Origin: Lunularia cruciata
Lineage: Eukaryota; Streptophyta; Marchantiopsida; Lunulariales; Lunulariaceae
NCBI GenBank assembly: GCA_948567375.1
Contig: OX419755.1
Span: 26,118,517 to 26,182,516, forward strand
Direction: 5' to 3'
Length of the DNA: 64,000 nt
Below, piece after piece: positions 28,711-52,982 of the stretch. Within the stretch, counting starts at the first letter, position 1. The number at the start of each line of letters is the position of its first letter. Below the pieces are notes generated by a model. The model saw only the letters and a list, made by a program, of their open reading frames with translations. It ran no database searches and was not told where the DNA came from. Made by a program: the position numbers and the translations under genes.

Positions 28711-28730
28711 TTTGTCGTTGCAGTTTTGTT

Positions 28731-35162: not shown

Positions 35163-35785
35163 TGTCGTGCGTATATACATTGGTACACAACATACATCGC
35201 TGTCAACATCATACACTATAGAAGCACAACTCACACATAAGTCATACATAGACTCTAAAGTGCCACAATAATCAGATTGCTTACCACTCTAAACTCAACT
35301 CAACTCAAATCAATACTTGATCTATCATTCTATAAACTGCCAACAACGGGGCACTAATTACAGTCAAGCCACACCCACTCAAGCATAAAGAATCCAAGTG
35401 ATGCTCACTGTCCTTTGTCCACCATAGCCAGGAACTCGAAGGCTCAACATCAGAGAAGTGAGCTCTCTAGAGCTCACTTTGAAACTATACCCCTTGGACT
35501 TGAGCTAGCACTGAAACCCTAACGGTCCCACTGATGGCACACTTGACGATGGGCCCCACTGTGAAGTCAGTACCCCGAACATGAAATCTGACCGTTGGAA
35601 AGTAGTCTCTGAGAAACTGCTGAAATAACTCTAACTATTATCACTAGAACTCAAGTGTCCGAGCATCTAGATGCGGCACTACAAATGGCGTGACAGCTAT
35701 CGTGCGTATATACATTGCTCACAACATCATACACTATAGAAGCACAACTCACACATAAGTCATACATAGACTCTAAAGTGCCACA
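35163..35785 (-). repeat. 3' LTR of E with extra repeats of about 90-105 bp on both sides of the LTR core
   Basis: The 427-bp core (35269-35695) matches the 5' LTR. On both sides of it lies a direct repeat (outer copy 35163-35268, inner copy about 35696-35785) containing CGTGCGTATATACATTG and TAGACTCTAAAGTGCCACA segments. Neither the 5' LTR of E nor that of E-old has this repeat. The outer copy starts exactly at the CCTT target duplication, so it belonged to the integrated DNA. The inner copy starts directly at the purine tract. Confidence 0.75.
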
Positions 35786-35798
35786 ATCGCCCCCCTAG
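35786..35798 (-). other. Polypurine tract of element E
   Basis: Minus strand CTAGGGGGGCGAT immediately before the TGTGGCAC start of the extended 3' LTR. Confidence 0.65.
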
Positions 35799-35956
35799 CT
35801 GGCGGTTAGGCCCCTCTAACTCCAGATAGCCATCTATTCTAAGTATATGGTATACCCTCTAATGGGCAAAGATCAAGAGGACGGGTGCTATGGAGCCCCA
35901 TCGTTAGTCGCTTGTCTGCAATCTATACCATATAAAGAATGAACTAGCTATAGGTC

Positions 35957-36684
35957 AAGTACATCTAGGACATAACCACTGTCCTTGAGGATCCATTGTG
36001 AGGGGAGGAGTCATACATGCCATATGTGTAATACTCCAAGGACAAGAGAAGAGAGAAAACACAAATTGCACACTCAAAACATTCGATGCCCCAAGGGAGC
36101 ACCTTCTCTTTATTATATAGACAAAGAGGATCTCCTCCAAGGAAGCTCCAACCTAGGATTAGGGACATAGATAGGTGATATGTCAGCAAGCTCCACCCTT
36201 GGATTACTTACTTGGATGGGTGACATGTATTGAGGGGGAGAATCTGCACATTTTTTAGGCCTAATTCATCCGGTTAGGCCTCCGAAATTGCCTTCAAAGA
36301 TTTCGGGCATATTTTGGTTCCTACTCTATTAGAAGAAGTCCCCTTTTGGTGATACCTCTTTCTGATCTGTTTAGTCCATCATGTGTAACATCCTTCCAGA
36401 TGTTACTAAACCAATTCTCACCTTTAAATCATATGTCTAGCTATTGGTTCTAAGGTTCTCAAGTCTATTTCGGTTTCTACCCTATTAGTAGAAGTACTCT
36501 TTTGGTGATACTTCTATCTTATCTATTTTGACCATCATGTATAACATCATTCTAGATGTTACCAAACCAAATTTCACATCTAGATCATATGGCTAGCTCT
36601 TGGTATTATAATATGCCATCCTCTCAAACAGCTATCACACACTAACATAGTAGCAGCTCCACCAGAAGAGCCACATAACATACA
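35957..36684 (-). pseudogene. PHD finger at the C-terminus of E integrase, split by a solo LTR
   Basis: First half (36684-36611): C-M-L-C, then V-C-D-S-C, then R-G-W-H. Second half (36026-35957): M-A-C-M-T-P-P-L, then W-L-C-P-R-C and a TGA one codon later. After removal of 36027-36610 and one ATATG copy, the halves join in frame as W-H-M-A-C, giving the full Cys4-His-Cys3 pattern C-x2-C, C-x2-C, H-x2-C, C-x2-C. PHD fingers bind histone H3 tails. At an integrase C-terminus this could act as a chromodomain does in chromoviruses (inference). Confidence 0.85.
36027..36610 (-). mobile_element. Solo LTR of the G chromovirus family inside E's PHD finger (584 bp)
   Basis: Plus-strand ends TGTAATACT and GGTATTATA, flanked by perfect 5-bp repeats ATATG (36022-36026 and 36611-36615). 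The reverse complement matches the G LTRs, with an internal deletion relative to 29183-29912. Confidence 0.92.
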
Positions 36685-38000
36685 CCTCAAGCCTGCACGT
36701 ACAAGTGCCAAGCTTGGGTCTATAGTACCATCAATGTTTGGGAGGTGGCATGGTGCACAATTGCGCACATGATCCTTGCAAACAACACCATCATGTCCTT
36801 CTAATACAAGGACTCTAGGTGGCAAAACCTCGCACACTCTCAAGATAGTGCGGCATGTAGAAACATCAAGTGTCGTCAGTGCTGTCTGCTGTAGATATAC
36901 ATAGTCACCTGGATGAAATTGATGGATCAAGGGTCTATAACCTCCTCCTCGAATGGTAGCATAGCATAAAGTATCTCTTTGCTGAGCAATCACCAAGTTC
37001 TCAAAGGCCATCGGCATCACTCTCCAAAAGATCTCTGCCCGTTGAGAACATGCGCTCATCCATACATTGGGGTCATCCAAGTCCAAAACTACAATAGTAT
37101 CTTGATGAATGGTTGCAAGTAAATCAGGATCTCATCCATAGATGGAGAGAAGGATGCTAAGGAAGCTTGCCGGCTGAACCAATAGCCCATGGCCAACCAA
37201 GGTAATTGGAGATCCCAATCTCCTAAGTGGCCTCTTTGCAAACCATACTTTTGCAATCCTCTCTTCACCGTCTAAACCACTCTCTCTGCTAAGCCATCTG
37301 CCTCAAGGTGATCTCGGGATGTAGTACGAAGATCAATCAAAGCCTTGTCACACATGACCTGAAACTCCCCCAAGAACTCTGTACCCTGATCAGTCAAAAC
37401 CTCAGCTGGTGCACCAAAATGACTAAGAATTTGATCCAGGAACAAGTAAGTTGTCCCTTCACTAGACTTGTCAGGAAGTGCCACCAACTCAATCCACTTG
37501 GAGAAGTGCTCCACCATCACCAAAACATATTGATGATGTCTCACAGTCAGCGGTAAAGGTCCGGCAAAGTCCAAACTCCAATGGTAACCCAATCCCATGA
37601 TAGGTAATGGGTGTAATTGTGGCGTAGGAGCATTGAATAATGCTCTAACTTCGTCACAAACCACACATCTAGCAACAAACTGCTATACCTTGGTCTGCAT
37701 ACCGCGCCACCAATAATGACTATGGAGTAAGCTATATGTATGCTTTACTCCAAAATGTCCTAGCTCCTCATGAGCATGACGGACCAACTGTGGTCTCTAA
37801 GATGGAAGTGGTACTACTCGCACTCTACCATCCTCCCATACACGCAAAAGGTGTCTACCCTCCAATCTGAACCGTCTGGCTCGCTGAAGAACACGGTCTC
37901 TCTCCTTGGCCCCAACTGTGCCACCCACAACACCAATGCAAAAATAGTCCATCACTAAGACATCATCATGAATGTCTTGCTGAACTACACCAATATCTTC
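36685..38000 (-). pseudogene. Element E integrase
   Basis: Open pieces 37272-37664 and 36685-37086. Core motifs: W-S-L-D-F-A-G-P (first Asp), L-T-D-Q-G-T-E-F (second) and D-G-L-A-E-R-V-V (Glu). A G-D-Y-V-Y-L-Q segment near 36890 is the usual post-core SH3-like region, leading into the PHD finger. The pieces are in different frames and stops are present, so it is inactive. Confidence 0.83.
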
Positions 38001-39500
38001 ACTCTCTGGATATGTGACCTCAATAACTCCTCTCGTATGCGTTGAGAGAGATACCACCAAAGTCTCTACAAATATACACAGAAAGGCCAATGCATGCCAA
38101 CTTGGCACCATCTCCTCATCTGTCTCACCATGCCAACGTGCTCCGGTCTGATCCTGCTGGCTGGGACATAGGTTTCTACTCAACCCATCTGCATCACGGT
38201 TCACCACTCCAAGTCTGTGAACAACCATGAAATCATATTCCTATAAAATTAGAGCCCATCGTGCAAGCTTCCCTAAAAGCTTGTCGGACTCCATCGACCA
38301 CTTCAGCGGCTGATGATCAGTGATGAGAGTGAAGGGATTACCAAATAGGTAACATCAAAAATGTGTTATTGCCCAAACTGCTGCCAAGCACTCTCCCTCA
38401 TATGAACTATACTTTGCCTCCGCTGAATTGTTGGAGCGACTAGCATAGGCCACCACAAACTCCTTCTCCTCATCATCATGTTGGGTGAGCACCGCTCCAA
38501 GCCCCAACATACTCCAATCAGAGTGAACCTGAAATGGTCATCCTCTAATCGGTCTCCTCAAAATAAGAGCAGATGTCAACCTCTCCTTGAGCTCTACAAA
38601 AGCTCTCTCCTACTCATCTCCCCAACACCACTCTTGTGTAAGCTTGGTCAGCTTCGTCAAGGCCTTGGCAATGGCACTAAATCCTCTAACATAGCGGCGA
38701 TAGAAGTTTGCCAAATCAAGGAATGCCCGCACTCTGCTCACATCTATAGGCCAAGGAATACGTGCAATAGCCTCCACCTTGGTCTGCTGGACACCAAGTC
38801 CTCCGGGGTAGATAGTGTGACCCAAATACTCAACCTGCTCGTAGAAGAACCTACACTTCCCAGGATGTAATTTGAGTCCATGAGATCTCAACCTCTCAAA
38901 CACCTCCAACAATTGTCTCTCATGCTCCTCCACAGTAGTGCTATAAACCAAAATGTCATAAATAGAGCACCGAGCAAAATCCAATCCAGCTAGGATCCTA
39001 TCCATGACCCTCTAGAACTCAGCAGGAGTGTTCTTTAACCCAAATGGTAAGAACTTCCATTGATATAGCACATCCTTGCCGTGAGGATCAATAGCCCAAA
39101 ATGTTGTCTTGGACTTATCCTCCTCCCTGATCGGCAACTGATGATATCCCGCTCGAAGATCCAAAGTACTGAAGACCTTTGCATGCCCAATCGCATCAAA
39201 AATCTCCTCCGGTGTAGGCATGGCATACCAATCAGCCTTGGTCTATCGGTTGATAGGACGGTAATCTCCACACATCTGCCTATCTGTATAGTTGCCATGC
39301 ATATCCTTCTTGGCTGGCATCAATGTCGTTGATGCATACTCTCCATGTGAAATCTCCACCAACCCAGCCTCAAAAAGGTCACTACTCCGGCTCTGAATCA
39401 ATGTCCTCTCCATATCACTATATCGATAAGGACATCAAAAAACTGGTGTGTTGCTAGTCAGCTCAATCCGTATACCATGTCCCTTTAGAGCACCCAAATC
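38001..39500 (-). pseudogene. Element E reverse transcriptase and RNase H
   Basis: RT from about 39300: M-C-G-D-Y-R-P-I-N, F-S-T-L-D-L-R-A-G-Y-H-Q, L-P-F-G-L-K-N-T-P-A-E-F. The active-site loop reads C-S-I-Y-D-I-L-V-Y (about 38960) where Y-I-D-D is required, so the first catalytic Asp is lost. RNase H follows, with T-D-H-Q-P-L-K-W (about 38310) and N-R-D-A-D-G-L-S-R (about 38190). Stops occur between pieces. RT loops resemble other gypsy RTs but differ clearly from A and C. Confidence 0.85.
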
Positions 39501-40081
39501 CTTCATACTGAAGGCAAAACAACTCGTGTGACTCCTCAAGAACCTCCAAACCCTCTGTCTTTCCTCTCCAATAAGCTTGGGTCCAAGATCTGGCTCCCAA
39601 GTATCCTCTGTAACTGTAGTAGGAGTGGAAGACGTACTGACTAGTTGCTACACTGGGCTCTTGGGAGCAATAGTGTCATGCTCCCAACCACTAGAGGTCC
39701 CAACCTCTATGTGAAAAACTCCCTCCACTTTGGCTGCAAGCTCCACACGTCCTCTAGCTGCATCCCAAGTGGACCAAGGGTGTAATCCAAGTAGCCCACG
39801 CTCACCTGGATGGACTCCAAGTAGGCCACTCTCCCTAGTAGCTACTAGATATGTCCCAAGAATACCATGTCCACTTGGTCCATCGCCCCCAACATGTGCC
39901 TGAATCGTCTCGATAGGCACAGGGCTCACAAGTGTCCGAGTGGTGATGCCTATCAAGCGCATCCTACGCTACTCTGCCAAGCCAAGGCTCATAATCCAGG
40001 TCAAACAGTTCAGGTCCATATCCACACCTGACGCCTAGATGCCTCTGACACTACTGGAATAGCGGTAATATTGGTGCAAAA
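39501..40081 (-). other. Linker between methyltransferase and RT of E
   Basis: An open piece (39648-39962) lies in the RT frame, so a frameshift separates it from the methyltransferase. It contains a near-duplicate G-L-L-G-V-H-P / G-L-L-G-L-H-P pair, low in complexity. No domain recognised. Confidence 0.5.
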
Positions 40082-40925
40082 ACCCATTGCATGCTCTCTC
40101 TCATCAGCATTGGGCTCCACCAACTACTGTAACTGTGAGTCCCAAACAAGTACAGGTCCTCCCTCTCAAAAAGCATGAGAGCCTCGGAAACTCATGAGTG
40201 TGGGAAATGTAGCTCTAGGCTGTCCAACTAGGTTCACCACTACCATAGGTGACCTATCAGCCACTACCACTGTCTGAGACTGACGCCCAACATCCAAGAT
40301 ATCATCAACAAGAATGTGGTCCAATCACTGAATCCCATCATAAGCACGCTGTAGAACCTCTTTGGGTAAGAGGTTTGTCCATCAAAGATGAAGACGATGA
40401 GCCCGTGATCCCACTCTAGCTGCATCTAACAATACAGTAGGTCCTATCCAAGAATGGACCTGATGTGTATTCGCCACCACTCTAGTGCGAGAATCACCCA
40501 TCAAAGGAATGTTCTCTAAAAGGTAAGCTAGAGAAACAGACTGATGAACCTGGAGATGTCGTAGTATCAGTAACATCTCCCACAACACACCAGAACAAGG
40601 ATCCTGAAGACCTAATCCTCTACCATCACGTGTATGTCCCTGACATGGCCATCCAGAAATCACCAAGTGAATAGGCCCATGTCTCTCTAGGTCATGCGCC
40701 CCCAATAAGGAAATGTCTCCTGGTAGGACCTTCTGGTAACCTCTGATTGCTAACATTGGTAATAACTTCGGATACCAATAGGCCAAGTGTGCCACATGAT
40801 GTAGAGAGACTTGCCTAGCAGTCTCATCTCTCTCTACATACAAGTACCTCTGTACTCGGATACCCGCCTATAACACCGTAGCTAGTCTGGTACTGATCCC
40901 ACCAAACAACTCCAATAGGCATATC
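40082..40925 (-). pseudogene. Cytosine-5 DNA methyltransferase domain (DNMT3-like) within E pol
   Basis: One frame throughout, broken only by stops (TAG 40868-40870, TGA 40382-40384 and a few further on). Motif I E-L-F-G-G-I-S (40892-40912). An acidic V-E-R-D-E-T segment (about 40835). Motif IV L-V-I-S-G-W-P-C-Q with the catalytic Cys at 40643-40645. Motif VI L-L-E-N-I (40508-40522). Motif VIII A-R-V-G-S-R-A-H-R (about 40400-40425). A target-recognition-like F-P-T-L-M-S-F-R-G-S-H-A-F. Motif IX/X E-R-E-H-A-M-G-F near 40082-40110. The motif order is canonical and the spacing and wording are closest to DNMT3, which methylates cytosine de novo. It sits between protease and RT of the same element. 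Confidence 0.88.
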
Positions 40926-41576
40926 CCCTCTACTGGATATTGCCAAGCAATGAGTGTGGTATCCAGAGGTGTCAAAGCAATCACCTTTGGAGGCTCATCC
41001 TCACACTCATCTCTTGATGGTACGAAGGCTCCACTCCAAGCCTGTTGCACCAACTGATCTGCATGCTGCTGCAATGCCTCCTCTGAACTCCATAATGGAA
41101 CATCCAAGGTGGATGGAACAATCCCACTTGTACTCCAAAGCCGAGTGATCTCCTCTGGTACTAGAGTATCCTTTGCATGGGCGTTCCTCTCCAAAAAGTC
41201 ACCAGGCCAAGTAATTGCACCACTGAAAGCTAAAACTGATGATGCCATGGTCCCGGACTGTAGTGAGCCAAGACTGCCACTATTGAAGCGTACTAGTAGG
41301 CGACATACCCATCCCTCACCAGACTGCCAACCAGGTCTATAAGACGCTATCTCCTCCCAATAGTCAATGCTGAAACCCATGGGGTATAACATTGCTCCCC
41401 CAACAATCACATCATATGACTCAGCTATCGTTGCAATAGCCTGAGCTCTCACCACCGAGCTATCAATCAGATGACCAGGCTGAACTTGGACAACAAGCTC
41501 TCCACGTGTGATGTACTGTGTCAAACCACCACCTAGAGATGTCTGGATCTGAAATGGACACCTCTCCACATCGGTC
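40926..41576 (-). pseudogene. Element E pol: protease C-terminal part and spacer before the methyltransferase
   Basis: Open without a stop from the A insertion site down to the TAG at 40868. It continues the protease begun at 49418-49560 after A is removed. The segment with L-I-D-S-S and V-I-V-G-G-A (about 41380-41460) looks like the C-terminal half of an aspartic protease fold. The following W-/S-rich region has no recognised domain. Confidence 0.6.
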
Positions 41577-42269
41577 TGTAACACCCATTTGTGCATGTGT
41601 GTGGTATTGTGATATTTAGCTTGGTATTACAAGTACTTAAGAGATATTATTTATATAGAGATAAAGGATGGTTCTATGTTAGTCATGGTTAGCTAAAGTT
41701 AGTCATAGCTAAGATAGATGGGACCTTACTTTAGAGGAAGTAGAAAAGATGAGCACCACTATTTTGGATTTTAGTGTGTTGACTTGGTATTATTCCTAGG
41801 TGTTTGGCTTTGGGGAAAGAGTTGAGAACTCTTGGGCCCGCAAGCCTTTTTGTTTTGGATTCTTCTTTAGTCCAAGGATAGCCCATGTGAAGGAATCCTT
41901 GCTTTAGTGGTTGGGTCAAGATAAGACCACATGCTTAGGGGAATATGCCCATGTGAATGGATATTCCTTTCTACTTTTTGACTTTACTTGACTTTTAGTC
42001 TAGTAACTTGAGTTACTACGGTAATTAGTAACTTTGGTACGTAACTATTTCACAAGTATATAAACAAGGAGTGAGGAGGTATTCATCATCCTTTCATTTT
42101 GCAACTATCTCTCTCTCATTGAGTTCTCTAGTGAGCAATGTCTTGAGTCTTGGAGTGTTAGCCTTGGAGGAGTATGATGGAGTTGGGGTTCCTTGCCTTC
42201 TTAGTCCATGGTGCGCTACCATAATAGCCATCAGAGGTTCATCCTGAGTGAGAGACAGGCCGGCTCACA
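41577..42269 (+). repeat. 5' LTR of element A (693 bp)
   Basis: Starts TGTAACACCC, ends GGCTCACA. It contains two candidate TATA segments, TTTATATAGAG near 41648 and GTATATAAACAAGG near 42055. The second is better placed for a transcription start. Confidence 0.96.
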
Positions 42270-42273
42270 TTTT

Positions 42274-42290
42274 TGGTTCCGTTGCCGGGA
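42274..42290 (+). other. Primer binding site of element A
   Basis: TGGTTCCGTTGCCGGGA begins 4 bases after the LTR. It resembles the tRNA-Asp site used by Athila/Tat elements, differing at two internal bases and at the last one. A different tRNA is possible. Confidence 0.6.
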
Positions 42291-42310
42291 CCTCTCTAGA
42301 AGGCAAGATA

Positions 42311-42481
42311 ATGTTCCGCGTCCAATTCTACATTAGGCAGAAGGAGGCTATGAGAGCTCACTTGGAGAGAACATTAGGAGAGGAGAGGGCTGAACTTATG
42401 TTAGAGAACCAAGATCCATTTGTATACCCTGTAGTTCATTATGATGTCTTTGAGGTGATTTTGTACATCTTGTACACATGA
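42311..42481 (+). CDS. 56-residue leader ORF of element A
   Basis: ATG 42311 (M-F-R-V-Q-F-Y-I-R-Q-K-E-A), stop TGA at 42479-42481, just after the primer site. Charged middle and a hydrophobic C-terminus (V-I-L-Y-I-L-Y-T). The same-length frame is kept in the old element B. No known domain. It may encode a small protein or act as an upstream ORF that limits gag translation. Confidence 0.35.
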   Translation: MFRVQFYIRQKEAMRAHLERTLGEERAELMLENQDPFVYPVVHYDVFEVILYILYT

Positions 42482-43129
42482 GAGGAATTGGAGAGATTGT
42501 GTGAGGTGGATTGCAGATTTTGGGGATTAAGGTGATTTTGGGCAAAATCTCAAGTTTGAGATCTGGACTTGAGATTTCTACACATGATAGCTTGGGTTAT
42601 CTTTCAGTTAGCACACTTGAAATTATTGAGAGAGCTTCTATGCGCACTGGGCTAGAATTTTTGAAAGTTGATAGGGTAAAGTGCTCCCGCAACTGCATGC
42701 TCTCTGGAAAATTGTACAGAGTCTGCCATTTCTTCAATGTTTAGTGAATTGTCCTGAAAATTTCCAAGAAAATTCAGTGCATTGTATCCTACCTGGTGCC
42801 ACAAAAATTAGAGAGAGATCATTTTTGCGCAGTGCGTTATGAGTTTTTGAAGTGAGGGGGGTGGTTTTCAGACCAAATCTGAAATATGGGTGCTGAATAG
42901 AAAGGTGTCTAGGCCAAATGGCTCGATGAAAAGATCTAAAATTTTGCAGGGAGGGACGCCCTAGAGTTGTGATCAAGTGTGGAAAATTTCAGAGGACTGT
43001 GACATATTAGTTGGGAGATTTGAGTGACATTGTGAGGAAGGGTCAATTCTGCAGAGTGGAGATCTCATGCATGAGAAGTTTGAGATCAACAAAAAGCATG
43101 TTTGAGTGTTTAGATTCATCTTGGGGAAC

Positions 43130-43603
43130 ATGGAGAGTCATCAAGAGTGGAAATTGAGATTATGCAAGGTTCCCCAAGGGTTTGAGGTGATTGTAGGGGT
43201 GGATTTGAGGAAAAGAGAGTTTACAATAGAATTTGAAGAGAGTGTTGAGAGGATCCAAAAACCTACACCACTTGGAGGAAAGAGTGAGTCTAAGTGCTTT
43301 CTATGTGGAGAGAAGGGACATAAGGCAAGTTCATGTCCATTGACCTTTGAGAGCAAGAGATTGAGGGAAAGGAGAGGCTTACTTGACTTGGGTTTGCATG
43401 TTGGACCTTCTTCACCAAGATTGGGAGGGAGAAGATCTAAGACCAAGGAGTTGTGTGAGGTTTGTGGAGTTGAAGGACTTCCAAAAGGACATGAGTGTAG
43501 TGGAGTAAAAGCACTTTTGGAAACTTTGGTGAAGGATCTTGGAGAGAGTCTTAGTACAGCTACAGAAATACTACCACCTTCATCAGCTAGTTCTCAAGAT
43601 TAG
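43130..43603 (+). CDS. Accessory zinc-knuckle protein upstream of gag in element A (157 aa)
   Basis: ATG 43130 (M-E-S-H-Q-E-W), TAG at 43601-43603, about 250 bases before gag. It holds a canonical CCHC knuckle C56-x2-C59-x4-H64-x4-C69 and a second cluster C109-x2-C112-x8-H121-x-C123. In between it is basic (R/K-rich, about residues 80-105). It is separate from Gag, which has its own knuckle. A decayed copy lies at the same place in B, so the ORF belongs to the family. Likely nucleic-acid binding. Function unknown. Confidence 0.7.
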   Translation: MESHQEWKLRLCKVPQGFEVIVGVDLRKREFTIEFEESVERIQKPTPLGGKSESKCFLCGEKGHKASSCPLTFESKRLRERRGLLDLGLHVGPSSPRLGGRRSKTKELCEVCGVEGLPKGHECSGVKALLETLVKDLGESLSTATEILPPSSASSQD

Positions 43604-43789
43604 TGATGGAGATAATCTTTCAACTTATGGATAAACTATCCATGAGAGTTAGATTAATATGCACTCTAGGATTTGATGTTGCTATAGAAATCTTGGAGCA
43701 ACCTGAACCTTTTGTGTTCCCTAGAGTGGATTATTCTCAGATGGTGTTAGTCATGTATATACTCTATTAGTAATAGAGTGAGAGAAAAG

Positions 43790-43815
43790 AAAAAAAAAAA
43801 AAAAAAAAAAAAAAA
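43790..43815 (+). repeat. Run of 26 A just upstream of gag in element A
   Basis: Uninterrupted poly(A) 35 bases before the Gag-Pol ATG. In B the same place holds only short A/G runs, so this is a slippage expansion or a sequencing-sensitive tract. Confidence 0.85.
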
Positions 43816-43849
43816 TTTTGAGAGAAAAGAAAGATAGTGAGGGGTTAAG

Positions 43850-46800
43850 ATGGGGAAACTTCCGGTTTTCTTTGGCAAGGATGGAGAAGATGTGGAGGCC
43901 TTTGTGAGAGACTTCAAGAGAGCTTGCATAGGAAACAATGAGAGGAGGAAGAATGAGTGGGCCTCATTATTACCAGATTTCTTTGAGGATGCAGCACTTA
44001 CATGGTATGAGTCAGAATACCAAAAGAGAGAGAGGAGAGAGGGGGAAGAGGAGTCTTGGGAGACTTTGACTTCAGCACTCATTGAGAACTTTCTTCCTGA
44101 TGAGAGTTATGAGAGATTGATGAGTGAGGTTACATTTCTCAAGCAAGGAGATGGAGAGAAAGTGAGAGTCTATGTGGAAAGAGTGGAAAAATTGGAGTCC
44201 AGATTTCGCATAGTGTTGAGGAAGGGTGGGGATGATGTGGAGACTACAATGATTGGCATAGGGGCCATGCTCACCAAGAATTTTGTGGGAGGATTGAGAC
44301 CACAAATTAGAAGCAAGGTGAGATATGAGAAACCTTCTTCCAAGGTTGAAGCTATCAAGATCGCAATTCGTATGGAGGAGAGTTTGGAAGGGGATGAAAG
44401 TGATTTGGTGGTGAAGGAGGTTGTGCATCCTCCTCAAGGCTACAAGTATGGTGGAACTTCTGATACTTTGGTGACAAGGGTTGCACCACAAGTAGTAGTT
44501 GCTCCAGTTCTTGCACCTCCACCAAAAGATCCACTCCAAACCATCACAGAACAACTTGCGGATCTCAAGATCAATGTGGTGCAATTATGGGAGAAGAGAG
44601 AGGTGGATCAGAATGTAGGGAGAGGGCCTAGGAGTTATGGAAACCATCCATATAGAGGAGGCCAACCAGCCAACAATTTCAATGATAGAAATTGTTTTGG
44701 TTGTGGGGGAAGAGGCCATATCCAAAGGAATTGCCCAAATTCCACTTACCATGGAGGAAGGAGTTATGAGGGAGCCAATAGAGGGAAAGAGGGAGGTAGT
44801 GAAACCCAAGTGGCTCCTAATCCCAACAAAGGTAAGGGGATAGCATCCATAGATGTGGTTGAGAGCAAGTATGAGAAGGGAGAGTGCTCAAACTCCAAGG
44901 GTCCTAATTTGGAGCTTTTGGCACAAGAGAAGAAGAGAGCTCGTTTTGCAGAGGATGTTCACTCTTCTCAAGGATTTACTTCAAGCAAGGATACTCCTAT
45001 GTCTACTAGGAGCACTCGCACCTCAACACCATCAACAACAAAGACTCCAAGGAAGAAGTTGGGGATGGAGGACTTCTTGATCTCCAAGCAACAATGGAAC
45101 TACAATGTGTTGGAGGATGTTGGTAGTCACAAGGCTAACATCACAGTGGGCCAATTAATTGCTTTGAACCCTACCTTGAGAAAGGAGCTTAGAGGTGGTT
45201 TGAGTTCTACAAGGAGCAAGAAGAAGAAGAAGGCAAAAGTTCCAATATCAATGGGGGTGGTGGATGCCAAGCCAGCACCATGGGAAGCTTGTGAATATGC
45301 CTCCAAGATTGATGTGAGAGTGAATGGTCACAACATCAAGGATGCATTGGTTGATGGAGGATCAGCAGTGAATGCCATGTCAGAAAGGTTGATGAAGAAG
45401 TTGGGTATGATACCCTCAAGAGCTTCAACATTTGTGGTGAGCATGGCAAACAAGCAACAAGTTCGACCAGTAGGAGTGATGGATAAGGTGGTAGTTTCAG
45501 TTATGGGAGTTCAAAATCTCATGACTTTCCAAGTCTTGAAGGATTCAAGCTATGACTTACTTCTTGGGAGGCCATGGTTGAGAGCAGCACGCACAACTGA
45601 TCGATGGCACAAAGGGTACTTAAGGATTGGGCCATCAAACCATAGAGTCACTGTTCCTGTGACTAACACCACCAACACCTCACATTCAGATACCCCATCT
45701 TCTGATTATTGGGAATCTGATTCTGAAGGAGGAGCTTCAGGTGTGGACACAAGCATGGAAGAGGAGACTTCCACGGAGGAGGATGAATCTGAATCTGATT
45801 CAGATGTGTATCCTTTGTGTGCTATGGATTTTGCACCTAAGCCAGAGGTTTTGAAGGACCCAGATAAATCACCATTGACACTTGAGGAGGTAGAGAGAAG
45901 GTTATCTACCCTCAAGTATGGCCCAAATGTTACCAAGGAGGAGAAGGTGAGATTTGAGGAGATTTTCCGCAAGTTCATCCATGTGTTTGCTTTTAGTTAC
46001 AAGGATTTGAAGGAAGTCACCTTGGAGGAGCACAAGATAGAGGTGGAGTCACATGCAAGACCAATCCGCCAAAAGCAACGTCGCATTAGCCCACCAATAT
46101 CTTTGGTTGTGAAGGAGGAGATTGATAAGCTCAAGGAGGCTGGATTTATCTTTGAGGTGGAGAATTCAGAATGGGTGTCTCCAATTGTCATTGTGAAGAA
46201 AAAGAATGGCAAGCTTCGGGTATGTGTGGATTACAAGAAGCTCAATGCTGTTACCAAGAAGGACTACTACCCATTGCCATTCATTGATGAGATCTTGGAG
46301 GAGGTTGCAGGTCATGAGAGGTACAGTTTTGGAGATGGTTATAGTGGATATAACCAAATCAAGATTGCACCAGAGCATCAACAACTCACCACATTCACCA
46401 CACCTTGGGGAACTTACGCTTTCAAGGTCATGCCTTTTGGGCTTTGCAATGCTCCAGCCACATTCCAACGGTTCATGAACAAGGTATTTGAACCTTTCAT
46501 TGGGAAATTTGTGAGAGATTTCATTGATGACTTTTGTGTCTATGGGAGCAAGGAGGAGCACTTTGAGCACCTAATCAAAGTCTTGCAACGCTTGGATGAG
46601 GCAAATGCATCACTCAACCCAGAGAAGTGCATTTTTGGATGTGAAGAAGGTCTACTTTTGGGGCACATCATCTCCAAGGATGGAATAGCAGTTGATCCTG
46701 AGAAGGTGAGGAAAATCTCAGACCTGCCATTCCCTTCAAGCTTGACAAAGTTACGCCAATTCTTGGGAATGGTTGGGTACTATAGGAGGTTCATCTTCTC

Positions 46801-48676
46801 ATTTTCCAACAAGGCTTATGCATTGACCATCTACATGAAGAAGGGTGTAGATTACATGGTGATTTTGGAAGACAAGGAGGCTCTCAAAGCTTTTGAGGAG
46901 CTCAAGCAATCCCTTGTTGTAGCTCCAATTCTTGCTAAACCTGATTGGAGTAAGCCTTTCATCCTCTACACTGATGCTTCTAATGTAGCTATAGGATGCA
47001 CTCTTAGTCAATTAGACCAAGATGGGCATGATCATCCAATAGCTTATGCTAGTAGGCAGATGGTTTCAGCAGAGAAGAACTACTCTGTCACAGAGAGAGA
47101 AGGGTTGGCAGTGATCTTTGGTCTCAAGAAGTTTAGACACTACTTGATTGGAGGGAAAGCCACAATTGTCACGGATCACAAGGCTTTGAAGTACATCTTC
47201 AACAAGCCTAATGTTGAAGGGAGACTAGCAAGGTGGATGATTCTCTTGTCTGAGTATGACTACACAATTGAGGATAGGCCAGGAAAGAAACATGCAAATG
47301 CTGATTTGTTATCTAGAGCCTATGATCATGATGGAGATGAGCCAGTAGATGATTCCTTCCCGGATGAGGAGCTCATGACAATCTCAGTCACTCAAGAGGT
47401 TCCAATGGAGTACAAGGAGATTGTGGATTTTGTGACAAGAGGTAACTATCCAGAAGGGATGCATGCTAGGGAGAGGAAGGCCCTTGCAGCAAGATCTAGA
47501 CCTTACACAATGGTGGATGATATTCTTTTTCACCAAGGAGCAGATGGTCTACTTCGAAGAGCAGTGGGTAAGGAAGAGTCTATCCTACTCATAAAGGAGT
47601 TTCATGAAGGTTTAGTATGTGGAGGACACTTTGCAGGAAAGGTGACTGCTTTCAAGATTCTAGATGCAGGTTACCATTGGAGAGGGATTTTCAAGGATTG
47701 TCTTGATTATTGCAAAACTTGTCATGTTTGTCAAGCTTTTGCTAGAAAGTCTACATCCACTCCACCACTTAGATCAATTCCATTGCTAGGACCCTTTGAG
47801 AAGTGGGGAATTGATTTTGTAGGACCTCTCAATAGAACCCCAAGGAACAATCGGTACATTGTGGTAGTTACTGATTACCTTACCAAGTGGGTTGAGGCTA
47901 GACCATTGAGGGACAAGAATGAAGATGAAGTGGGTAGATTTCTTTATGAACGCATTATCACTAGGTTTGGATGCCCTTTGGAGTTGGTTTCTGATAGAGG
48001 AGGAGAGTTTACAGGAAGCATTACTACAGCCATGCTACGACATTTCTCTATCACACATAGAGTAACTACATCCTATAAGCCAAATTCCAATGGCTTGGCA
48101 GAGAGAACCAATCAGACCTTGTGCATGATGTTGGCCAAAGATGCAGAAATGGAGGGGGCTAAACATCATTGGGACAAGAGGATTCATGCAGTTTTGTGGG
48201 AGTATAGGACAACCATGAAGACTTCCACTGGATATTCTCCATTCCAATTGGTGTATGGTATTGAGTCTACCTTACCTATTCACTTTGATCTTCCTACCTT
48301 CCAAAGCATTCATAGGAGATTGAAGAAAGCACAAGGAAGTGATGCAGAGAAGTCAAGGAAGGATCAACTCATGGAGTTGGAAGAGGCAAGAGCAGTTGCT
48401 ATGGTTCGAGTGGAGCAAGCCCAAAGGAAACAAAAGAAGAGCTATGACAAGAGGCAAGGCAAGAAGAAGGTGGAGCCTTTCAAAGAAGGTGATTGGGTAA
48501 TGTTGTTTGATTCCATTCGATTCAAGAGAGTACAAAAGAAGTTTTTGCCTAAGTACTTTGGACCTTTCATAGTAGAGAAGGTGTGGGGAAATTACACTTA
48601 TGATCTCAAGGAGTTGGGAGGAAGACACTTTGATAGGATTAACCATGATAAGTTGAAGATGTACCATAGAAGGTAG
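43850..48676 (+). CDS. gag-pol: Gag-Pol polyprotein of element A, intact (1608 aa)
   Basis: A single frame with no internal stop. Gag core about residues 1-230. CCHC knuckle C282, C285, H290, C295. Protease with D502-G-G-S. RT with V-C-V-D-Y-K-K-L-N, M-P-F-G-L-C-N-A-P and F-I-D-D (D893, D894). RNase H with Y-T-D-A-S, T-E-R-E, V-T-D-H and N-A-D-L-L-S-R. Integrase HHCC (H1252, H1260, C1291, C1294) and catalytic D1322, D1382, E1418 (35 residues between the last two). The C-terminus ends shortly after a G-P-F-I-V-E segment, with no chromodomain. ATG chosen because B keeps it and it follows the A-rich leader. It should give all enzymes for copying and integration. Gag and Pol share one frame, so their ratio must be set by processing or RNA-level means. 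Confidence 0.95.
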   Translation: MGKLPVFFGKDGEDVEAFVRDFKRACIGNNERRKNEWASLLPDFFEDAALTWYESEYQKRERREGEEESWETLTSALIENFLPDESYERLMSEVTFLKQGDGEKVRVYVERVEKLESRFRIVLRKGGDDVETTMIGIGAMLTKNFVGGLRPQIRSKVRYEKPSSKVEAIKIAIRMEESLEGDESDLVVKEVVHPPQGYKYGGTSDTLVTRVAPQVVVAPVLAPPPKDPLQTITEQLADLKINVVQLWEKREVDQNVGRGPRSYGNHPYRGGQPANNFNDRNCFGCGGRGHIQRNCPNSTYHGGRSYEGANRGKEGGSETQVAPNPNKGKGIASIDVVESKYEKGECSNSKGPNLELLAQEKKRARFAEDVHSSQGFTSSKDTPMSTRSTRTSTPSTTKTPRKKLGMEDFLISKQQWNYNVLEDVGSHKANITVGQLIALNPTLRKELRGGLSSTRSKKKKKAKVPISMGVVDAKPAPWEACEYASKIDVRVNGHNIKDALVDGGSAVNAMSERLMKKLGMIPSRASTFVVSMANKQQVRPVGVMDKVVVSVMGVQNLMTFQVLKDSSYDLLLGRPWLRAARTTDRWHKGYLRIGPSNHRVTVPVTNTTNTSHSDTPSSDYWESDSEGGASGVDTSMEEETSTEEDESESDSDVYPLCAMDFAPKPEVLKDPDKSPLTLEEVERRLSTLKYGPNVTKEEKVRFEEIFRKFIHVFAFSYKDLKEVTLEEHKIEVESHARPIRQKQRRISPPISLVVKEEIDKLKEAGFIFEVENSEWVSPIVIVKKKNGKLRVCVDYKKLNAVTKKDYYPLPFIDEILEEVAGHERYSFGDGYSGYNQIKIAPEHQQLTTFTTPWGTYAFKVMPFGLCNAPATFQRFMNKVFEPFIGKFVRDFIDDFCVYGSKEEHFEHLIKVLQRLDEANASLNPEKCIFGCEEGLLLGHIISKDGIAVDPEKVRKISDLPFPSSLTKLRQFLGMVGYYRRFIFSFSNKAYALTIYMKKGVDYMVILEDKEALKAFEELKQSLVVAPILAKPDWSKPFILYTDASNVAIGCTLSQLDQDGHDHPIAYASRQMVSAEKNYSVTEREGLAVIFGLKKFRHYLIGGKATIVTDHKALKYIFNKPNVEGRLARWMILLSEYDYTIEDRPGKKHANADLLSRAYDHDGDEPVDDSFPDEELMTISVTQEVPMEYKEIVDFVTRGNYPEGMHARERKALAARSRPYTMVDDILFHQGADGLLRRAVGKEESILLIKEFHEGLVCGGHFAGKVTAFKILDAGYHWRGIFKDCLDYCKTCHVCQAFARKSTSTPPLRSIPLLGPFEKWGIDFVGPLNRTPRNNRYIVVVTDYLTKWVEARPLRDKNEDEVGRFLYERIITRFGCPLELVSDRGGEFTGSITTAMLRHFSITHRVTTSYKPNSNGLAERTNQTLCMMLAKDAEMEGAKHHWDKRIHAVLWEYRTTMKTSTGYSPFQLVYGIESTLPIHFDLPTFQSIHRRLKKAQGSDAEKSRKDQLMELEEARAVAMVRVEQAQRKQKKSYDKRQGKKKVEPFKEGDWVMLFDSIRFKRVQKKFLPKYFGPFIVEKVWGNYTYDLKELGGRHFDRINHDKLKMYHRR

Positions 48677-48713
48677 AGAGACCTTCACTTTGAGGACAAA
48701 GTGAAAACTTAGT

Positions 48714-48724
48714 CCGGGGGTAAA
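48714..48724 (+). other. Polypurine tract of element A
   Basis: CCGGGGGTAAA ends directly at the TGTAACACCC start of the 3' LTR. B has CCGGAGGTAAA. Confidence 0.75.
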
Positions 48725-49417
48725 TGTAACACCCATTTGTGCATGTGTGTGGTATTGTGATATTTAGCTTGGTATTACAAGTACTTAAGAGATATTATTT
48801 ATATAGAGATAAAGGATGGTTCTATGTTAGTCATGGTTAGCTAAAGTTAGTCATAGCTAAGATAGATGGGACCTTACTTTAGAGGAAGTAGAAAAGATGA
48901 GCACCACTATTTTGGATTTTAGTGTGTTGACTTGGTATTATTCCTAGGTGTTTGGCTTTGGGGAAAGAGTTGAGAACTCTTGGGCCCGCAAGCCTTTTTG
49001 TTTTGGATTCTTCTTTAGTCCAAGGATAGCCCATGTGAAGGAATCCTTGCTTTAGTGGTTGGGTCAAGATAAGACCACATGCTTAGGGGAATATGCCCAT
49101 GTGAATGGATATTCCTTTCTACTTTTTGACTTTACTTGACTTTTAGTCTAGTAACTTGAGTTACTACGGTAATTAGTAACTTTGGTACGTAACTATTTCA
49201 CAAGTATATAAACAAGGAGTGAGGAGGTACTCATCATCCTTTCATTTTGCAACTATCTCTCTCTCATTGAGTTCTCTAGTGAGCAATGTCTTGAGTCTTG
49301 GAGTGTTAGCCTTGGAGGAGTATGATGGAGTTGGGGTTCCTTGCCTTCTTAGTCCATGGTGCGCTACCATAATAGCCATCAGAGGTTCATCCTGAGTGAG
49401 AGACAGGCCGGCTCACA
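48725..49417 (+). repeat. 3' LTR of element A (693 bp)
   Basis: Identical to the 5' LTR except C at 49230 for T at 42082. Followed by GGTC and resumed E protease sequence. Confidence 0.96.
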
Positions 49418-51746
49418 GGTCTTCCTTAACTCCAGACCAACAACTGCAACCTTCCCCAACATAAGGGGCTGCACACCAGAGTCTAACAAGACTCTCTGTG
49501 GTGTATAGACCTTCCTTGAAGGTCCCACCAAATGAAAAATCCCCCTCTGGTTATCCAATAGGACAACACCAAGTGTGAACCGTGCTCTCTCAAAGGCCAG
49601 TCTAGCTGGCAACTCCTCCAGTCTAGCCGCTGCTGCCCGCCATAAACCACTAGTCACTGAATGGATCCCATGCTCCTCAACCAAGTCAGCTCCACTACCA
49701 ACTACCTCTGCTCTAGTAGTAGGGACTGCACCATCCCTACTCTCATACAAGGTGGCAGCCAACCGGAATGCTGGGGCTGGGTCAACTCCCAATGTAAACA
49801 TATCACTGGCCAAAAACAAAGGACATCGCATAATCAGCTGAGCCGCCCCCAACATCATACTAGACTCAATCTGTGTAGTAGCAGGTGGCTAACTAGCAGG
49901 TAGTCCATCATGTACTCCATCACCACCTACCACACCTACACTAGGACGTCTAGGAACCATGAATGTTGTTTGCAATGCCTCAGATAGCGTGAAAGACTGG
50001 GGAAGTTTGACCTGTCTCCCAACCTCTCCTCTCTGTGGGTCCAACTCCACTGATGCTCCTCTAGGCTCTAGAGCATGTATTGCACTCCTAGTCATTGCTA
50101 CATATGCATCCACCTGTGATGCTTCACACATGAAGTCCAAAGCATCTCTATCACCAGCATATGAGGTGGAAGCCTCAACACCCAAATCTGATCTCCTCTG
50201 AGCAATAGCCATACTAGCCAATCTCTACTCCAACTGCTCAATCCGAGTAGCCATAGTTGTATCAAAAGTAAGGGCAGGTATTGCACCCCTACTAGGTGTA
50301 GATCCTCTACTACCACCTCGTCCTCCATGAACTGGAGCTCCTCTACTACCAGCCATAGCAGCCCTACCACTCCGTAACTCCGGGTGTAGGTCAAAACATC
50401 GGTCACTAGTGTGACCAAATCTGTAGCAATGCTCACACTGCCTCTGTGCTGGCTGTGATGTACCCAAGGTATCAGGTCCACTGCTCTGAGTACACTCTCT
50501 CCGATGGTGAGGTCCACCACAAATCCAACAAGCAACCCCACCACTCACTGGTTGCTGCTGACCCAAAAATGAGGGTAAGGGTCTAACTCCACTAGGCCCT
50601 CCACTCGCTCCATAGGATCTGGGTTGTCTACCTTGTCCTCAAAAACCAACTGGGCATGGTGCACTTTGTTGCACTCTAGAAGAAGTCACAGCCATGGATG
50701 AGGTCTCCCTACCAAATCCAGATGTCACCACTCTCTCCTCCACCATGTTGAGCTCAATACGCTCAGCCAAACCAAAGACCACTGCCAAAGTAGGCAAAGT
50801 AGCCTGTAATAACGTAGCATCACGAACTCTATGTTGCAACTCCATGTCCAGTATCCCATACCAAAATTAGACTGCCTGGGCCTCAGTAACTCCCTGAGTG
50901 AAACTGATCAGCCGCCTCATGCGAGTGTATGCCTCACGTAGGCTCTCTCCAGCCTTCCGCTGGAACTCTTGCAAGCTCCTCAGCTTGTCAGTCCGCACTC
51001 CTTGGTAGTTCTGCCTCAAACACAAGAAGAACTCCACCTTGGGGTTAAACCCCGGTACCACACCACCTCCTGCAGCGGTGCCTCCACTCGTAGTAGCACT
51101 ATCTCCAACTAGTGCACCTCCACTAGCTCCACCCACACTACTCGAGCTAGAACTCGTAGGTACAGCCAATCTACTCCTGGCCACCGAGCCTGAAGTGATG
51201 GAGACATAGTGTGGAGACCATACTATCTCTATAACTCAATCTCCTCCAAATGAGCTCTCCTGAACTCATGGTAGTCATCCATTGGCGGACCCTCTAGATG
51301 CTGAAACAACCCCTTCTATGCCATGAATGGTGTGAACAAAGTCGGGTTCCGCATCTGCTACAAATCACACCAACTATCAAACTCCTGGATGAAGTCATCC
51401 AACTCAATGGTACCCACTGTACCAGAGTAACACCTAAGGCCTTTGGAGGCCCCATAAATCTCATCCATGTCCCACAACAATAGTGCGGACACACCAAGTG
51501 CACTCTCAACTGAATTAGCTCCTGTGTCAAACTCCAACTCAGAGTCAATCTCCTCCCTCATTGGGACTTGAGATACAAGCTGATATTGAGCACCACTCCG
51601 AGTAAACCTACTGCATATTGCAGGGCTAACTCCTCTGGAATCTCCAAAGAACTCCGTCGGGACAAAGTAACCACAACAGCAAACCCAAACCACCAACTGC
51701 AACCGCAAGTCGCAACCGCAAGTACCCCACTAAGTGCCAACACCAA
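49418..51746 (-). pseudogene. Element E gag and N-terminal protease
   Basis: Gag N-terminus about 51746-51290 (a separate open piece). The main frame (51184 down to 49418) has gag core F-F-L-C-L-R-Q-N-Y-Q-G with S-L-R-E-A-Y-T-R-M (about 51020-50930), knuckles C-W-I-C-G-G-P-H-H-R-R-E-C (about 50530) and C-E-H-C-Y-R-F-G-H-T-S-D-R-C (about 50440), and protease V-L-L-D-S-G-V-Q (about 49490-49470). Stops include TAA in gag, TGA near 50640, TAG at 50225-50227 and TAG near 49889. The frame continues past A into 41576. Confidence 0.85.
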
Positions 51747-52982
51747 CTAAGCACCACCCACTAATGTAACTCTAACCGAGATAACTACACTAGGGGAAAG
51801 GGCAACTTGTAACCTACCATCATAACACGCACTCTCACAGTTTGCAAGTCATCGCTTCTTGCCTCACCGGAGAGAAACAAAGGTAGTCTGACTGGTCATC
51901 ACTCTAGCCTCACCACCGAGAGCACACCAGAGCACCAACGCTCAAAAGTCAGGGCACCTCACACAAACGTGGTGCACAAACAGGAAGCAGAGAATGGAGG
52001 GGGTCCAATCACAAGAAATCTAAACAAAAACCCTCCATCTCATAACACAACATGGGACTAACTCTACCACCATTTGGCATTTGACATAAGAGAAGTTCGT
52101 ATCTAAGTCCTAAGCTACCAGGATCACCAAGAATGGGATCAAACTGCCTCTCCTAGCCAAAGCTACATGTGTGTAGATAATAGTGGCACAATCACTAGGA
52201 CAACAAGTGAGTGTGGACCAGTTGGCTAGGGCACCAGTCTAGGAACAAGAGATCTAAGGGTCAAACCTTGTTGCACACAATCTAGCAGGAAAGGCAGATT
52301 TTGCCAACCAATGACCAAGATCTACTCTAAACTAACTAGCCTCATGCCAGCAAGTTGGCTTGCTGGCCCTTCTAGGCCTTTGTAGCCTCTCATAGCCCAC
52401 AGCTCTATGCCTCGAAGCCTCAAAACGCTAAAATTCAGCCAAATGAGGCCTTTCTTATTGCCACTTCGAACCTCCTCCAAAAGTGGCAAAACTTCTCCAA
52501 ATCAACAAAAGTCCTCCGAACTAGCAAAACTCCTCTAAATCTGGCCAAAATCTAACGTAAATCCCAACCAAAATTTGACGTAAACCCTAAAGTTGGTTGT
52601 CCACCAAATCTCCCGTTAACTTTCCACTCGAGCCAAATTGACAACATGGGTTTCTCCAAATCACAAATTCATGAGAATAGCTTCACAACTCCACCTTCAT
52701 TTTGACTTTCAAAGCCCAACTCGGAACAAAGTGGTCCTACCTTCACCTCTTGAGCTCAAAATCACAACCACTGCTCAAAATTTGCTCCTTCTTTGCTCAA
52801 AATTTGGCCAGCGCTTCTGCACACCGTCCGCCTAATTGCCAAATCTGCATCAATTGAATGAGCTTCTGCACACTAGGGAAATGCTGAACTTGAATCAAGC
52901 TACCAACGATCCACCGAGCTTGGAGATACCACCAACACTCAAAGTTCCTGCACCTGATTTCCCCCTGAGCTCACTTCTTTGA
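51747..52982 (-). other. Untranslated leader of element E
   Basis: Non-coding sequence between 5' LTR and gag, alignable in part with E-old 2931-3994. I see no convincing tRNA primer site next to the LTR end (minus strand TCAAAGAAGTGAGCTC). A TGGTATCTCC segment about 60 bases further in is a weak match to the tRNA-Met site. Confidence 0.5.

What the first reader, a model, noticed from the sequence alone, without database searches (positions are those of the whole stretch)
40082..40925. DNMT3-like cytosine methyltransferase built into a plant Ty3/gypsy polyprotein
Seen: in one minus-strand frame, methyltransferase motifs I, IV (P-C-Q), VI (E-N-I), VIII and IX/X occur in canonical order, between the protease and RT of element E. 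The frame continues from gag through protease once A is removed. Known (from memory, unchecked): methyltransferases captured by retroelements have been reported in dinoflagellates and a charophyte alga. An occurrence in this kind of genome, with DNMT3-like wording and not plant DRM, would extend that. Inference: the element may methylate its own or target DNA.
Basis: partly seen in the sequence, partly recalled or inferred. Interest (0 to 1): 0.93.

Follow-up and report, generated by a model that had tools for sequence, protein, structure and literature searches.

The report
Liverwort retrotransposon carrying a DNA methyltransferase
An abundant jumping gene in what is probably a liverwort carries its own DNMT3-type DNA methyltransferase, encoded with the particle proteins just before a stop codon of the leaky type, which makes it a land-plant case for asking why a parasite would carry the kind of enzyme that hosts use to silence parasites.

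Summary
Window 39971-40930 (minus) is a C5 cytosine methyltransferase domain inside a decayed Ty3/gypsy-type element, E (35163-53433, 4-bp target duplication AAGG), interrupted by a younger Ty3 element, A (41577-49417). A nine-sequence family profile matches DNMT3A at 7e-23, DRM at 3e-9, M.HhaI at 6e-8. The window copy is dead (5 in-frame stops in 283 codons), but its family is large and young: 150 of 150 scored genome hits matched, six in 1428-aa open frames. Sampled copies have ORF1 = Gag-protease-methyltransferase, then a UAG (22 of 22) followed by CAR YYA, the TMV-type leaky context (21 of 22), then ORF2 = RT-RNaseH-integrase-PHD finger. Terminal repeats are split, A...B-A-B, with 4-bp target duplications (7 of 7 checked). 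Homologues occur in Marchantia, Riccia, Calypogeia, Sphagnum, Closterium, Haematococcus and Volvox. On a tree 44 element enzymes separate from 4 cellular DNMT3/DRM. Precedent: KnitGypsy-Dnmt3 of Klebsormidium (Gypsy domains, A-B-A-B repeats). New here: land-plant abundance, a Gag-linked enzyme before a leaky-type stop, an integrase PHD finger, and hints of one old green-lineage association. Activity and purpose are untested.

The parts
35163..53433 (-). Element E, whole span (Ty3/gypsy-type, decayed), including nested element A and a small insertion
   Evidence: Repeat layout and flanks; 4-bp target duplication AAGG at 53434-53437 and 35159-35162
52985..53433 (-). Repeat A1 (5' end of E, begins TGTC)
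   Evidence: 86.9% identical to 35269-35695
49418..51450 (-). 5' part of ORF1: Gag and N-terminal part of protease (upper limit approximate)
   Evidence: 78% identical to the second copy at 698-3520; position taken from relatives' ORF1
41577..49417 (+). Element A: younger Ty3 element nested in E, LTRs 99.9% identical, 4-bp target duplication GGTC, one 1611-aa open frame
40931..41576 (-). C-terminal part of protease and linker to the methyltransferase
   Evidence: Open frame 40868-41626; comparison by eye with ORF1 of a relative
39971..40930 (-). DNMT3-like C5 cytosine methyltransferase domain, 5 in-frame stops in 40082-40930 and a frame shift near the end
39642..39650 (-). UAG stop followed by CAA CUA (fits UAG CAR YYA) between ORF1 and ORF2
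   Evidence: rule from PMC2754532
38610..39390 (-). Reverse transcriptase region (broken); Pfam hit in 38610-39011, the rest by eye
37272..37682 (-). Integrase core (rve)
   Evidence: E = 1.5e-12
36608..36690 (-). PHD finger, first half
   Evidence: (0.01, below cut-off); whole PHD in a relative 9.7e-9
36049..36615 (.). Small repeat insertion that splits the PHD finger (present elsewhere in the window)
35955..36026 (-). PHD finger, second half, and ORF2 stop
   Evidence: relatives read it uninterrupted
35710..35786 (-). Repeat B1 (77 of 106 bases matched)
35269..35695 (-). Repeat A2
35163..35268 (-). Repeat B2 (3' end of E, ends GACA)
2..4336 (-). Second, older copy of the family, cut by the window start at motif I of the methyltransferase
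   Evidence: 75-78% identical to E; the rest lies in L029

Best explanation
E is a dead copy of a large, recently active retrotransposon family of a probable liverwort. Shown from sequence: ORF1 encodes Gag, protease and a DNMT3-type methyltransferase with its catalytic residues kept; ORF2 encodes RT, RNase H, integrase and a PHD finger; a UAG in the TMV leaky context separates them; terminal repeats are split A...B-A-B; integration leaves 4-bp duplications. Inferred: most translation stops at the UAG, so the methyltransferase is made in Gag-like amounts and packed into particles, with RT and integrase supplied by readthrough. The enzyme most likely methylates the element's cDNA (or the DNA at the new site) before or at insertion, so that a new copy arrives already looking like silent host DNA; the PHD finger on the integrase steers insertion by reading histone H3, as chromodomains do in other Ty3 elements (recalled).
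For: DNMT3 identity: profile vs PDB, DNMT3A 7.2e-23, DNMT3B 5e-19, DRM 3.2e-9, HhaI 6.2e-8, DNMT2 5.8e-5. Non-rearranged motif order, while the host has its own DNMT3 in at least two exons (L030) and rearranged DRM-type genes (L033, L039). Catalytic Cys, motif VI Glu-Asn and motif VIII Trp kept in 33 of 33 aligned copies; mean codon conservation 0.949. Cys kept in 170 of 175 readable homologues. Mean dN over mean dS of stop-free copies 0.36 (17 of 33), near RT 0.31 (16 of 32). Methyltransferase 74% identical to a Marchantia protein, linkers about 46%. UAG in 22 of 22 copies looked at, CAR YYA after it in 21 of 22. ORF1 ends before RT in 13 of 14 homologues examined for it. PHD: Pfam 9.7e-9, PDB 3.9e-17. 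Young copies: A1/A2 identity 96.0-99.55%, median 98.44, 15 copies. Integrated copies look methylated: 88 transitions to 9 transversions between A1 and A2; of the transitions 42 CG, 34 CHG, 12 CHH.
Against: No activity, expression or readthrough data. The published yeast test of a KnitGypsy-Dnmt3 domain gave no methylation, called inconclusive because human DNMT3B also failed (PMC5890265). CG and CHG decay can be the host's own doing. Longer motif blocks are not fully kept: GWPCQ in 27 of 33 copies, the motif VIII AHR.R residues in 25 of 33. A Volvox relative lost motif IV. Integrase dN/dS is 0.42, so 0.36 is not specially low, and against the window copy the methyltransferase value is 0.53. 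Some predicted proteins of Marchantia, Riccia, Sphagnum and Closterium hold methyltransferase and RT in one chain, so the split is not seen in every relative. The 22 copies share descent, so the kept UAG is not 22 independent events; the oldest copy (L029) no longer has CAR after it.
Confidence: 0.5

Rival explanations
1. The methyltransferase acts on host chromatin, not on element cDNA: released by the protease, it goes to the nucleus and methylates target sites or competing elements, changing where and how well copies persist.
For: A PHD finger on the integrase points to chromatin interaction; predicted excess of ORF1 product over RT.
Against: No nuclear signal or chromatin association tested; protease cleavage sites not mapped.
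Confidence: 0.2
2. Self-restraint: pre-methylated new copies are silenced at once, which limits damage to the host and lets the family persist at high copy number.
For: At least 150 copies with strong CG/CHG decay after insertion.
Against: Ordinary plant silencing gives the same decay; many sampled copies are young and have long open frames, so restraint is not strict.
Confidence: 0.15
3. The domain methylates RNA, or serves as a nucleic-acid-binding or structural part of Gag, not as a DNA methyltransferase.
For: It sits in the Gag frame before the stop; a Volvox relative lost motif IV; 62 of 175 readable homologues have Glu-Cys where Pro-Cys is usual.
Against: Cys is kept in 170 of 175 readable homologues and 33 of 33 copies; similarity is to DNMT3 rather than DNMT2.
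Confidence: 0.12
4. Artefact: a host DNMT3 pseudogene picked up by chance beside a retrotransposon, or motif matches by chance.
For: The window copy alone scores weakly (Pfam 0.0046, below cut-off).
Against: 150 of 150 scored genome hits matched, those other than the window's own at 87-91% identity, many in long open frames; homologues beside RT or integrase in other genera; family profile 7.2e-23.
Confidence: 0.01

Closest known systems
KnitGypsy-Dnmt3 of Klebsormidium nitens (de Mendoza et al. 2018, PMC5890265; abstract, parts 1, 3 and 4 of the text and passages seen)
   Same: Gypsy-type domains with a Dnmt3 methyltransferase, no DRM rearrangement; repeats described as those of a DIRS element (for SymbioDIRS: A-coding region-B-A-B) with Gypsy domain composition; purifying selection (Ka/Ks < 0.2).
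   Different: Described there in the Pol polyprotein ORF, as an independent acquisition in the K. nitens lineage, with fewer copies. Here the domain is in the Gag-protease ORF before a leaky-type UAG, there is an integrase PHD finger (not mentioned in the parts read), verified copies number at least 150, and homologues span green algae, Closterium, mosses and liverworts.
SymbioDIRS-Dnmt3 and SymbioLINE-Dnmt of Symbiodinium (PMC5890265)
   Same: Retrotransposons carrying DNMTs; SymbioDIRS enzymes are Dnmt3-type and methylate CG in yeast.
   Different: DIRS elements with tyrosine recombinase, or LINEs; here a DDE integrase (rve) with 4-bp target duplications.
Ty3 chromoviruses with chromodomain integrases (PMC3350952 and PMC2864245, search listing and abstract starts only)
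   Same: Ty3 pol order with a chromatin-reader-type domain after the integrase.
   Different: PHD finger instead of chromodomain; an added methyltransferase; split repeats.
Orchid Ty3/gypsy elements with an m6A RNA demethylase domain (PMC9289625, search listing and abstract start only) and an arthropod retrotransposon with a methyl-CpG-binding domain (seen only as a reference)
   Same: Retrotransposons that captured a host gene for modifying nucleic acid or reading the mark.
   Different: Other domains and lineages.

Membership tests
DNMT3-type C5 methyltransferase | Motifs I, IV, VI, VIII, IX/X in non-rearranged order with catalytic Cys | tested here: met
DNMT3-type C5 methyltransferase | Closer to DNMT3 than to DRM, DNMT2 or bacterial enzymes | tested here: met
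   Profile E-values. In the tree element enzymes form their own clade beside DNMT3+DRM, so they are DNMT3-like, not nested in DNMT3
DNMT3-type C5 methyltransferase | De novo methylation of DNA | not testable with these tools
   Needs an enzyme assay
Ty3/gypsy retrotransposon | Gag, protease, RT-RNase H-integrase order | tested here: met
   RVT_1 1.4e-31, RNase H 1.4e-32, H2C2 4.3e-18, rve 1.2e-12; Gag by Pfam only 0.056 (below cut-off) plus one canonical zinc knuckle; protease by its DSGA motif
Ty3/gypsy retrotransposon | Two equal LTRs at the ends | tested here: not met
   A1 at the 5' end, B1-A2-B2 at the 3' end; two B copies in 17 of 20 loci placed on a copy (one in L015 and L026, none in L028); no B in the 5' half in any of the 15 loci where A1 was in view
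Ty3/gypsy retrotransposon | Short target duplication and TG...CA ends of DDE integration | tested here: met
   4-bp duplications in 7 of 7 copies checked: six loci and E
KnitGypsy-Dnmt3-like elements | Gypsy domains + Dnmt3 + DIRS-like A-B-A-B repeats | tested here: met
   against the text and legend
KnitGypsy-Dnmt3-like elements | Dnmt3 domain inside the Pol polyprotein ORF | tested here: not met
   Here it is in the Gag-protease frame, before the UAG; relatives with RT-RH-methyltransferase-integrase do have it in pol
KnitGypsy-Dnmt3-like elements | Common descent with the K. nitens elements | not tested
   No K. nitens sequence was among the hits listed (all 61, best 120 of 305, best 120 of 366)
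DIRS/PAT-like YR elements | Tyrosine recombinase | tested here: not met
   No such Pfam domain in ORF1 or ORF2; rve integrase instead
Readthrough UAG of TMV type | UAG followed by CAR YYA | tested here: met
   21 of 22 copies; the old copy L029 keeps the UAG but not CAR; rule in PMC2754532
Readthrough UAG of TMV type | Measured readthrough | not testable with these tools
   Needs a reporter or ribosome profiling

The most novel reading that the evidence does not exclude
A single ancient capture of a DNMT3 methyltransferase founded a green-lineage-wide clade of retroelements that combine a DDE integrase, DIRS-type split repeats, a PHD finger and a methyltransferase. The Klebsormidium case would then not be independent but one branch of it. 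In the land-plant branch the enzyme has become a Gag-level particle protein through a leaky stop codon.
Probability: 0.45. Interest if true: 0.85.

Novelty: new variant of a known kind. Interest (0 to 1): 0.74.

Why it matters
DNA methylation is what plants use to silence transposons, so a successful plant retrotransposon that keeps a DNMT3-type enzyme under selection is a paradox that can be tested. Marchantia, which has homologues at 74% identity, is a tractable laboratory plant, unlike the earlier algal hosts. The split repeats combined with a DDE integrase also raise a separate question: how such an element finishes its cDNA ends.

Tried and rejected
Chance motif match or adjacent pseudogene: rejected. 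DRM origin: rejected; the motif order is not rearranged and DNMT3 scores far better. DIRS membership: rejected, no tyrosine recombinase. Viral contigs: no match to the six peptide patterns tried. Plasmid records: no near match. A genome-wide count by a methyltransferase pattern was asked for 12 times and never answered, and an RT pattern once. Whether copies without the methyltransferase exist in this genome is therefore unknown. Rfam and tRNA scans found nothing. One search's comparison of shared and singleton changes was too confounded by C-to-T decay to carry weight (ratio for shared changes: methyltransferase 0.38, RT 0.34, tail and integrase 0.72).

Full report
What is there. On the minus strand the window holds an element, E, from 53433 (5') to 35163 (3'). 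It is broken by a younger Ty3 element, A (41577-49417, plus strand, LTRs 99.9% identical, target duplication GGTC) and by a small repeat insertion (36049-36615). The reported region is the methyltransferase part of E. Motifs I, IV, VI, VIII and the start of IX/X stand in order in one frame, with 5 stops in 283 codons, and a short deletion shifts the frame near the end, at about 40020.

Is it a methyltransferase? The window copy alone is weak: Pfam DNA_methylase 0.0046, below cut-off; PDB 0.1-0.2. With X at the stops it matches DNMT3A at 4.7e-6, though Pfam stays at 0.018. An open-frame relative reaches Pfam 5.2e-7, above cut-off. A nine-sequence profile (A1) gives DNMT3A 7.2e-23, DNMT3B 5e-19, DRM 3.2e-9, M.HhaI 6.2e-8, DNMT2 5.8e-5. 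The genome also has its own DNMT3 in at least two exons (L030) and rearranged DRM-type genes (L033, L039) (names assigned by me from motif order and DNMT3A similarity). The element enzyme is none of these.

The family. The window lies in a 565.8-Mb assembly of 74 contigs. The methyltransferase piece gave 9960 first-look candidates; 150 were scored and all 150 matched, those other than the window's own at 87-91% identity, six of them in 1428-aa open frames. The other candidates were not scored, so the copy number is at least 150 and otherwise unknown. I fetched 20 copies as 10-kb stretches (L022 was placed wrongly). Nine of the 20 were taken for their long open frames (1288-1428 aa), so the sample is not random. 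A1/A2 repeat identity in the 15 copies where a pair was measured is 96.0-99.55%, median 98.44 (two of the pairs, L017 and L018, over 319 and 340 bases only). The family was thus active recently, while the window copy (A1/A2 86.9%) is older, and the second window copy at 2-4336 is 75-78% identical to E.

Architecture. In open copies ORF1 encodes Gag (Pfam only 0.056; one canonical zinc knuckle), a protease with LLDSGA, the methyltransferase, and a tail. ORF2 encodes RT, RNase H, integrase with H2C2 and rve domains, and a PHD finger (Pfam 9.7e-9; PDB 3.9e-17). Between them stands a UAG: 21 copies, the window's included, have UAG followed by CAR YYA. The oldest copy (L029) was missed by that pattern; aligned by hand it keeps the UAG but has a second UAG where CAR stood. 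So the UAG is kept in 22 of 22 and the context in 21 of 22. PMC2754532 (passages seen) names CAR YYA after UAG as essential for TMV readthrough and notes candidate readthrough among rice gypsy elements. I looked at the ends of 14 homologous ORF1 proteins: 13 end before RT, and one Marchantia model runs into RT. Other homologues have ORF2 as a separate frame. Against this, other predicted proteins from Marchantia (P0006, P0014), Riccia (P0176), Sphagnum (P0032) and Closterium (P0058, P0117) hold methyltransferase and RT in one chain; some may be spliced gene models, some real fusions. Readthrough is therefore predicted, not shown.

Ends. The 449-base repeat at the 5' end (A1) is found again near the 3' end (A2), but a 106-base repeat (B) stands on both sides of A2 and not after A1. 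Two B copies were found in 17 of the 20 loci placed on a copy; L015 and L026 showed one, L028 none; L029 also showed two, at 84 and 81%. No B lay in the 5' half in any of the 15 loci with A1 in view. The element ends are TGTC...GACA with 4-bp target duplications in 7 of 7 copies checked, E included. A DDE integrase with such repeats is unusual: they belong to tyrosine-recombinase elements (recalled; SymbioDIRS). The legend of Fig. 4c in de Mendoza et al. 2018 says KnitGypsy-Dnmt3 has the repeat structure of a DIRS element with Gypsy domains. This shared oddity is the best hint that the two are one lineage.

Selection. Catalytic Cys, the motif VI Glu-Asn and the motif VIII Trp are kept in 33 of 33 aligned copies, dead ones included; the mean over all codons is 0.949. 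Whole blocks fare less well: LFGG 30, GWPCQ 27, the AHR.R residues 25, GQAM 29 of 33. Stop-free copies give a ratio of mean dN to mean dS of 0.36 for the methyltransferase (17 of 33), 0.31 RT (16 of 32), 0.32 protease (20 of 31), 0.23 Gag (7 of 20), 0.21 RNase H (13 of 21), 0.42 integrase (10 of 21); against the dead window copy the methyltransferase ratio is 0.53 and against L029 0.38. Picking stop-free copies lowers these values. Against one Marchantia protein (P0003) the methyltransferase is 74% identical, Gag core 69%, protease 62%, linkers 46-47%; against another (P0006) it is 70%, RT 66%, RNase H 80%.

Methylation footprint. Between A1 and A2 of 15 copies (6425 bases compared) there are 88 transitions and 9 transversions. 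By context the transitions are 42 CG, 34 CHG and 12 CHH, against 34, 48 and 139 sites per A copy, counted in L020. Inserted copies have therefore decayed as heavily CG- and CHG-methylated DNA would. This says nothing about which enzyme placed the marks.

Distribution. Homologues are named in Marchantia polymorpha, Sphagnum fallax and Closterium (61 hits), in M. paleacea, Riccia sorocarpa, Calypogeia fissa and Sphagnum troendelagicum (best 120 of 305 listed), and in Haematococcus and Volvox (best 120 of 366 listed), besides many unnamed metagenome proteins. Of the five Haematococcus and two Volvox proteins examined, one each showed the methyltransferase in the same chain. That the host is a liverwort is inferred from the nearest names (Riccia integrase 88% over 54% of the query); the species is unknown. 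Two positions of the domain occur: before RT, and between RNase H and integrase. Of 66 proteins with RT and integrase, 31 also carry the methyltransferase in the same protein; the others may have it in a separate ORF1 or lack it. Motif IV is Pro-Cys in 103 and Glu-Cys in 62 of 175 readable sequences (220 aligned); Cys is kept in 170. A Volvox protein has lost motif IV.

Tree. From 127 usable element enzymes I chose among the found proteins 46; two (P0131, P0060) fell out as too partial. With host DNMT3, human DNMT3A and two host DRM, the 44 element enzymes separate at 100/100; 18 fall in a clade whose multi-domain members have RT-RH-methyltransferase order (92/95), 25 in one whose multi-domain members have the domain before RT (95/95), and one (P0109) lies outside both. 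Weak points: only four cellular sequences; element enzymes were found by searching with one of their own; no K. nitens or Symbiodinium sequence; 10 of 45 inner branches are under 80. A single old capture is favoured, not proved.

Reading. Best supported is a Ty3-type element whose particles carry a DNMT3-type enzyme in Gag-like amount, acting on the element's cDNA or its landing site, with a PHD finger for target choice. The parts are shown; the amounts, the substrate and the benefit are inferred. de Mendoza et al. already proposed cDNA self-methylation (abstract and text parts 1, 3 and 4 of 7 read).

Novelty. Retrotransposon DNMTs and a Gypsy-Dnmt3 element are published (PMC5890265); PMC12344493 (passages) mentions DNMT3 in retrotransposons of streptophytes and dinoflagellates as previously reported. 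Searches of the held library for liverwort, moss or PHD cases listed, by titles and abstract starts, none describing this family; most subscription papers and preprints are not held, so this is no proof of absence. Hence a new variant of a known kind.

Noticed in passing
36049-36615; also 29206-29915, 54625-55372, 60566-60986: A short repeat family, partly with a 156-base tandem unit, sits at four places in the window, once inside the PHD finger of E.
   Followed up: no
11643-15369, 20094-23844, 25290-29121: A unit of about 3.7 kb occurs three times, two copies direct and one inverted, 88-95% identical; the one long ORF tested (21742-23058) has no Pfam match.
   Followed up: no
33105-33983 (minus): DDE_1 transposase fragment (pogo/Tigger-type by recall), Pfam 1.2e-15.
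   Followed up: no
P0041 (homologue), residues about 1700-1860: A relative with RT-RH-methyltransferase-integrase-PHD seems to carry a second, different methyltransferase-like stretch (DPWAGTG...TSPWF) at its C-terminus; read by eye only.
   Followed up: no
P0088, Sphagnum troendelagicum: Moss methyltransferase fragment 72% identical to the liverwort family over 83% of the query, about as close as Marchantia, and placed among the liverwort sequences in the tree: possible horizontal transfer or contamination.
   Followed up: partly
P0067: A 455-aa protein assigned to a Candidatus Obscuribacterales MAG falls inside the element clade, most likely a binning contaminant.
   Followed up: partly
5' end of E copies just after A1: Sequence after A1 (CATCAGAGAAG) resembles the initiator-Met tRNA complement only in part; the primer for reverse transcription is unclear (resemblance recalled).
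   Followed up: no
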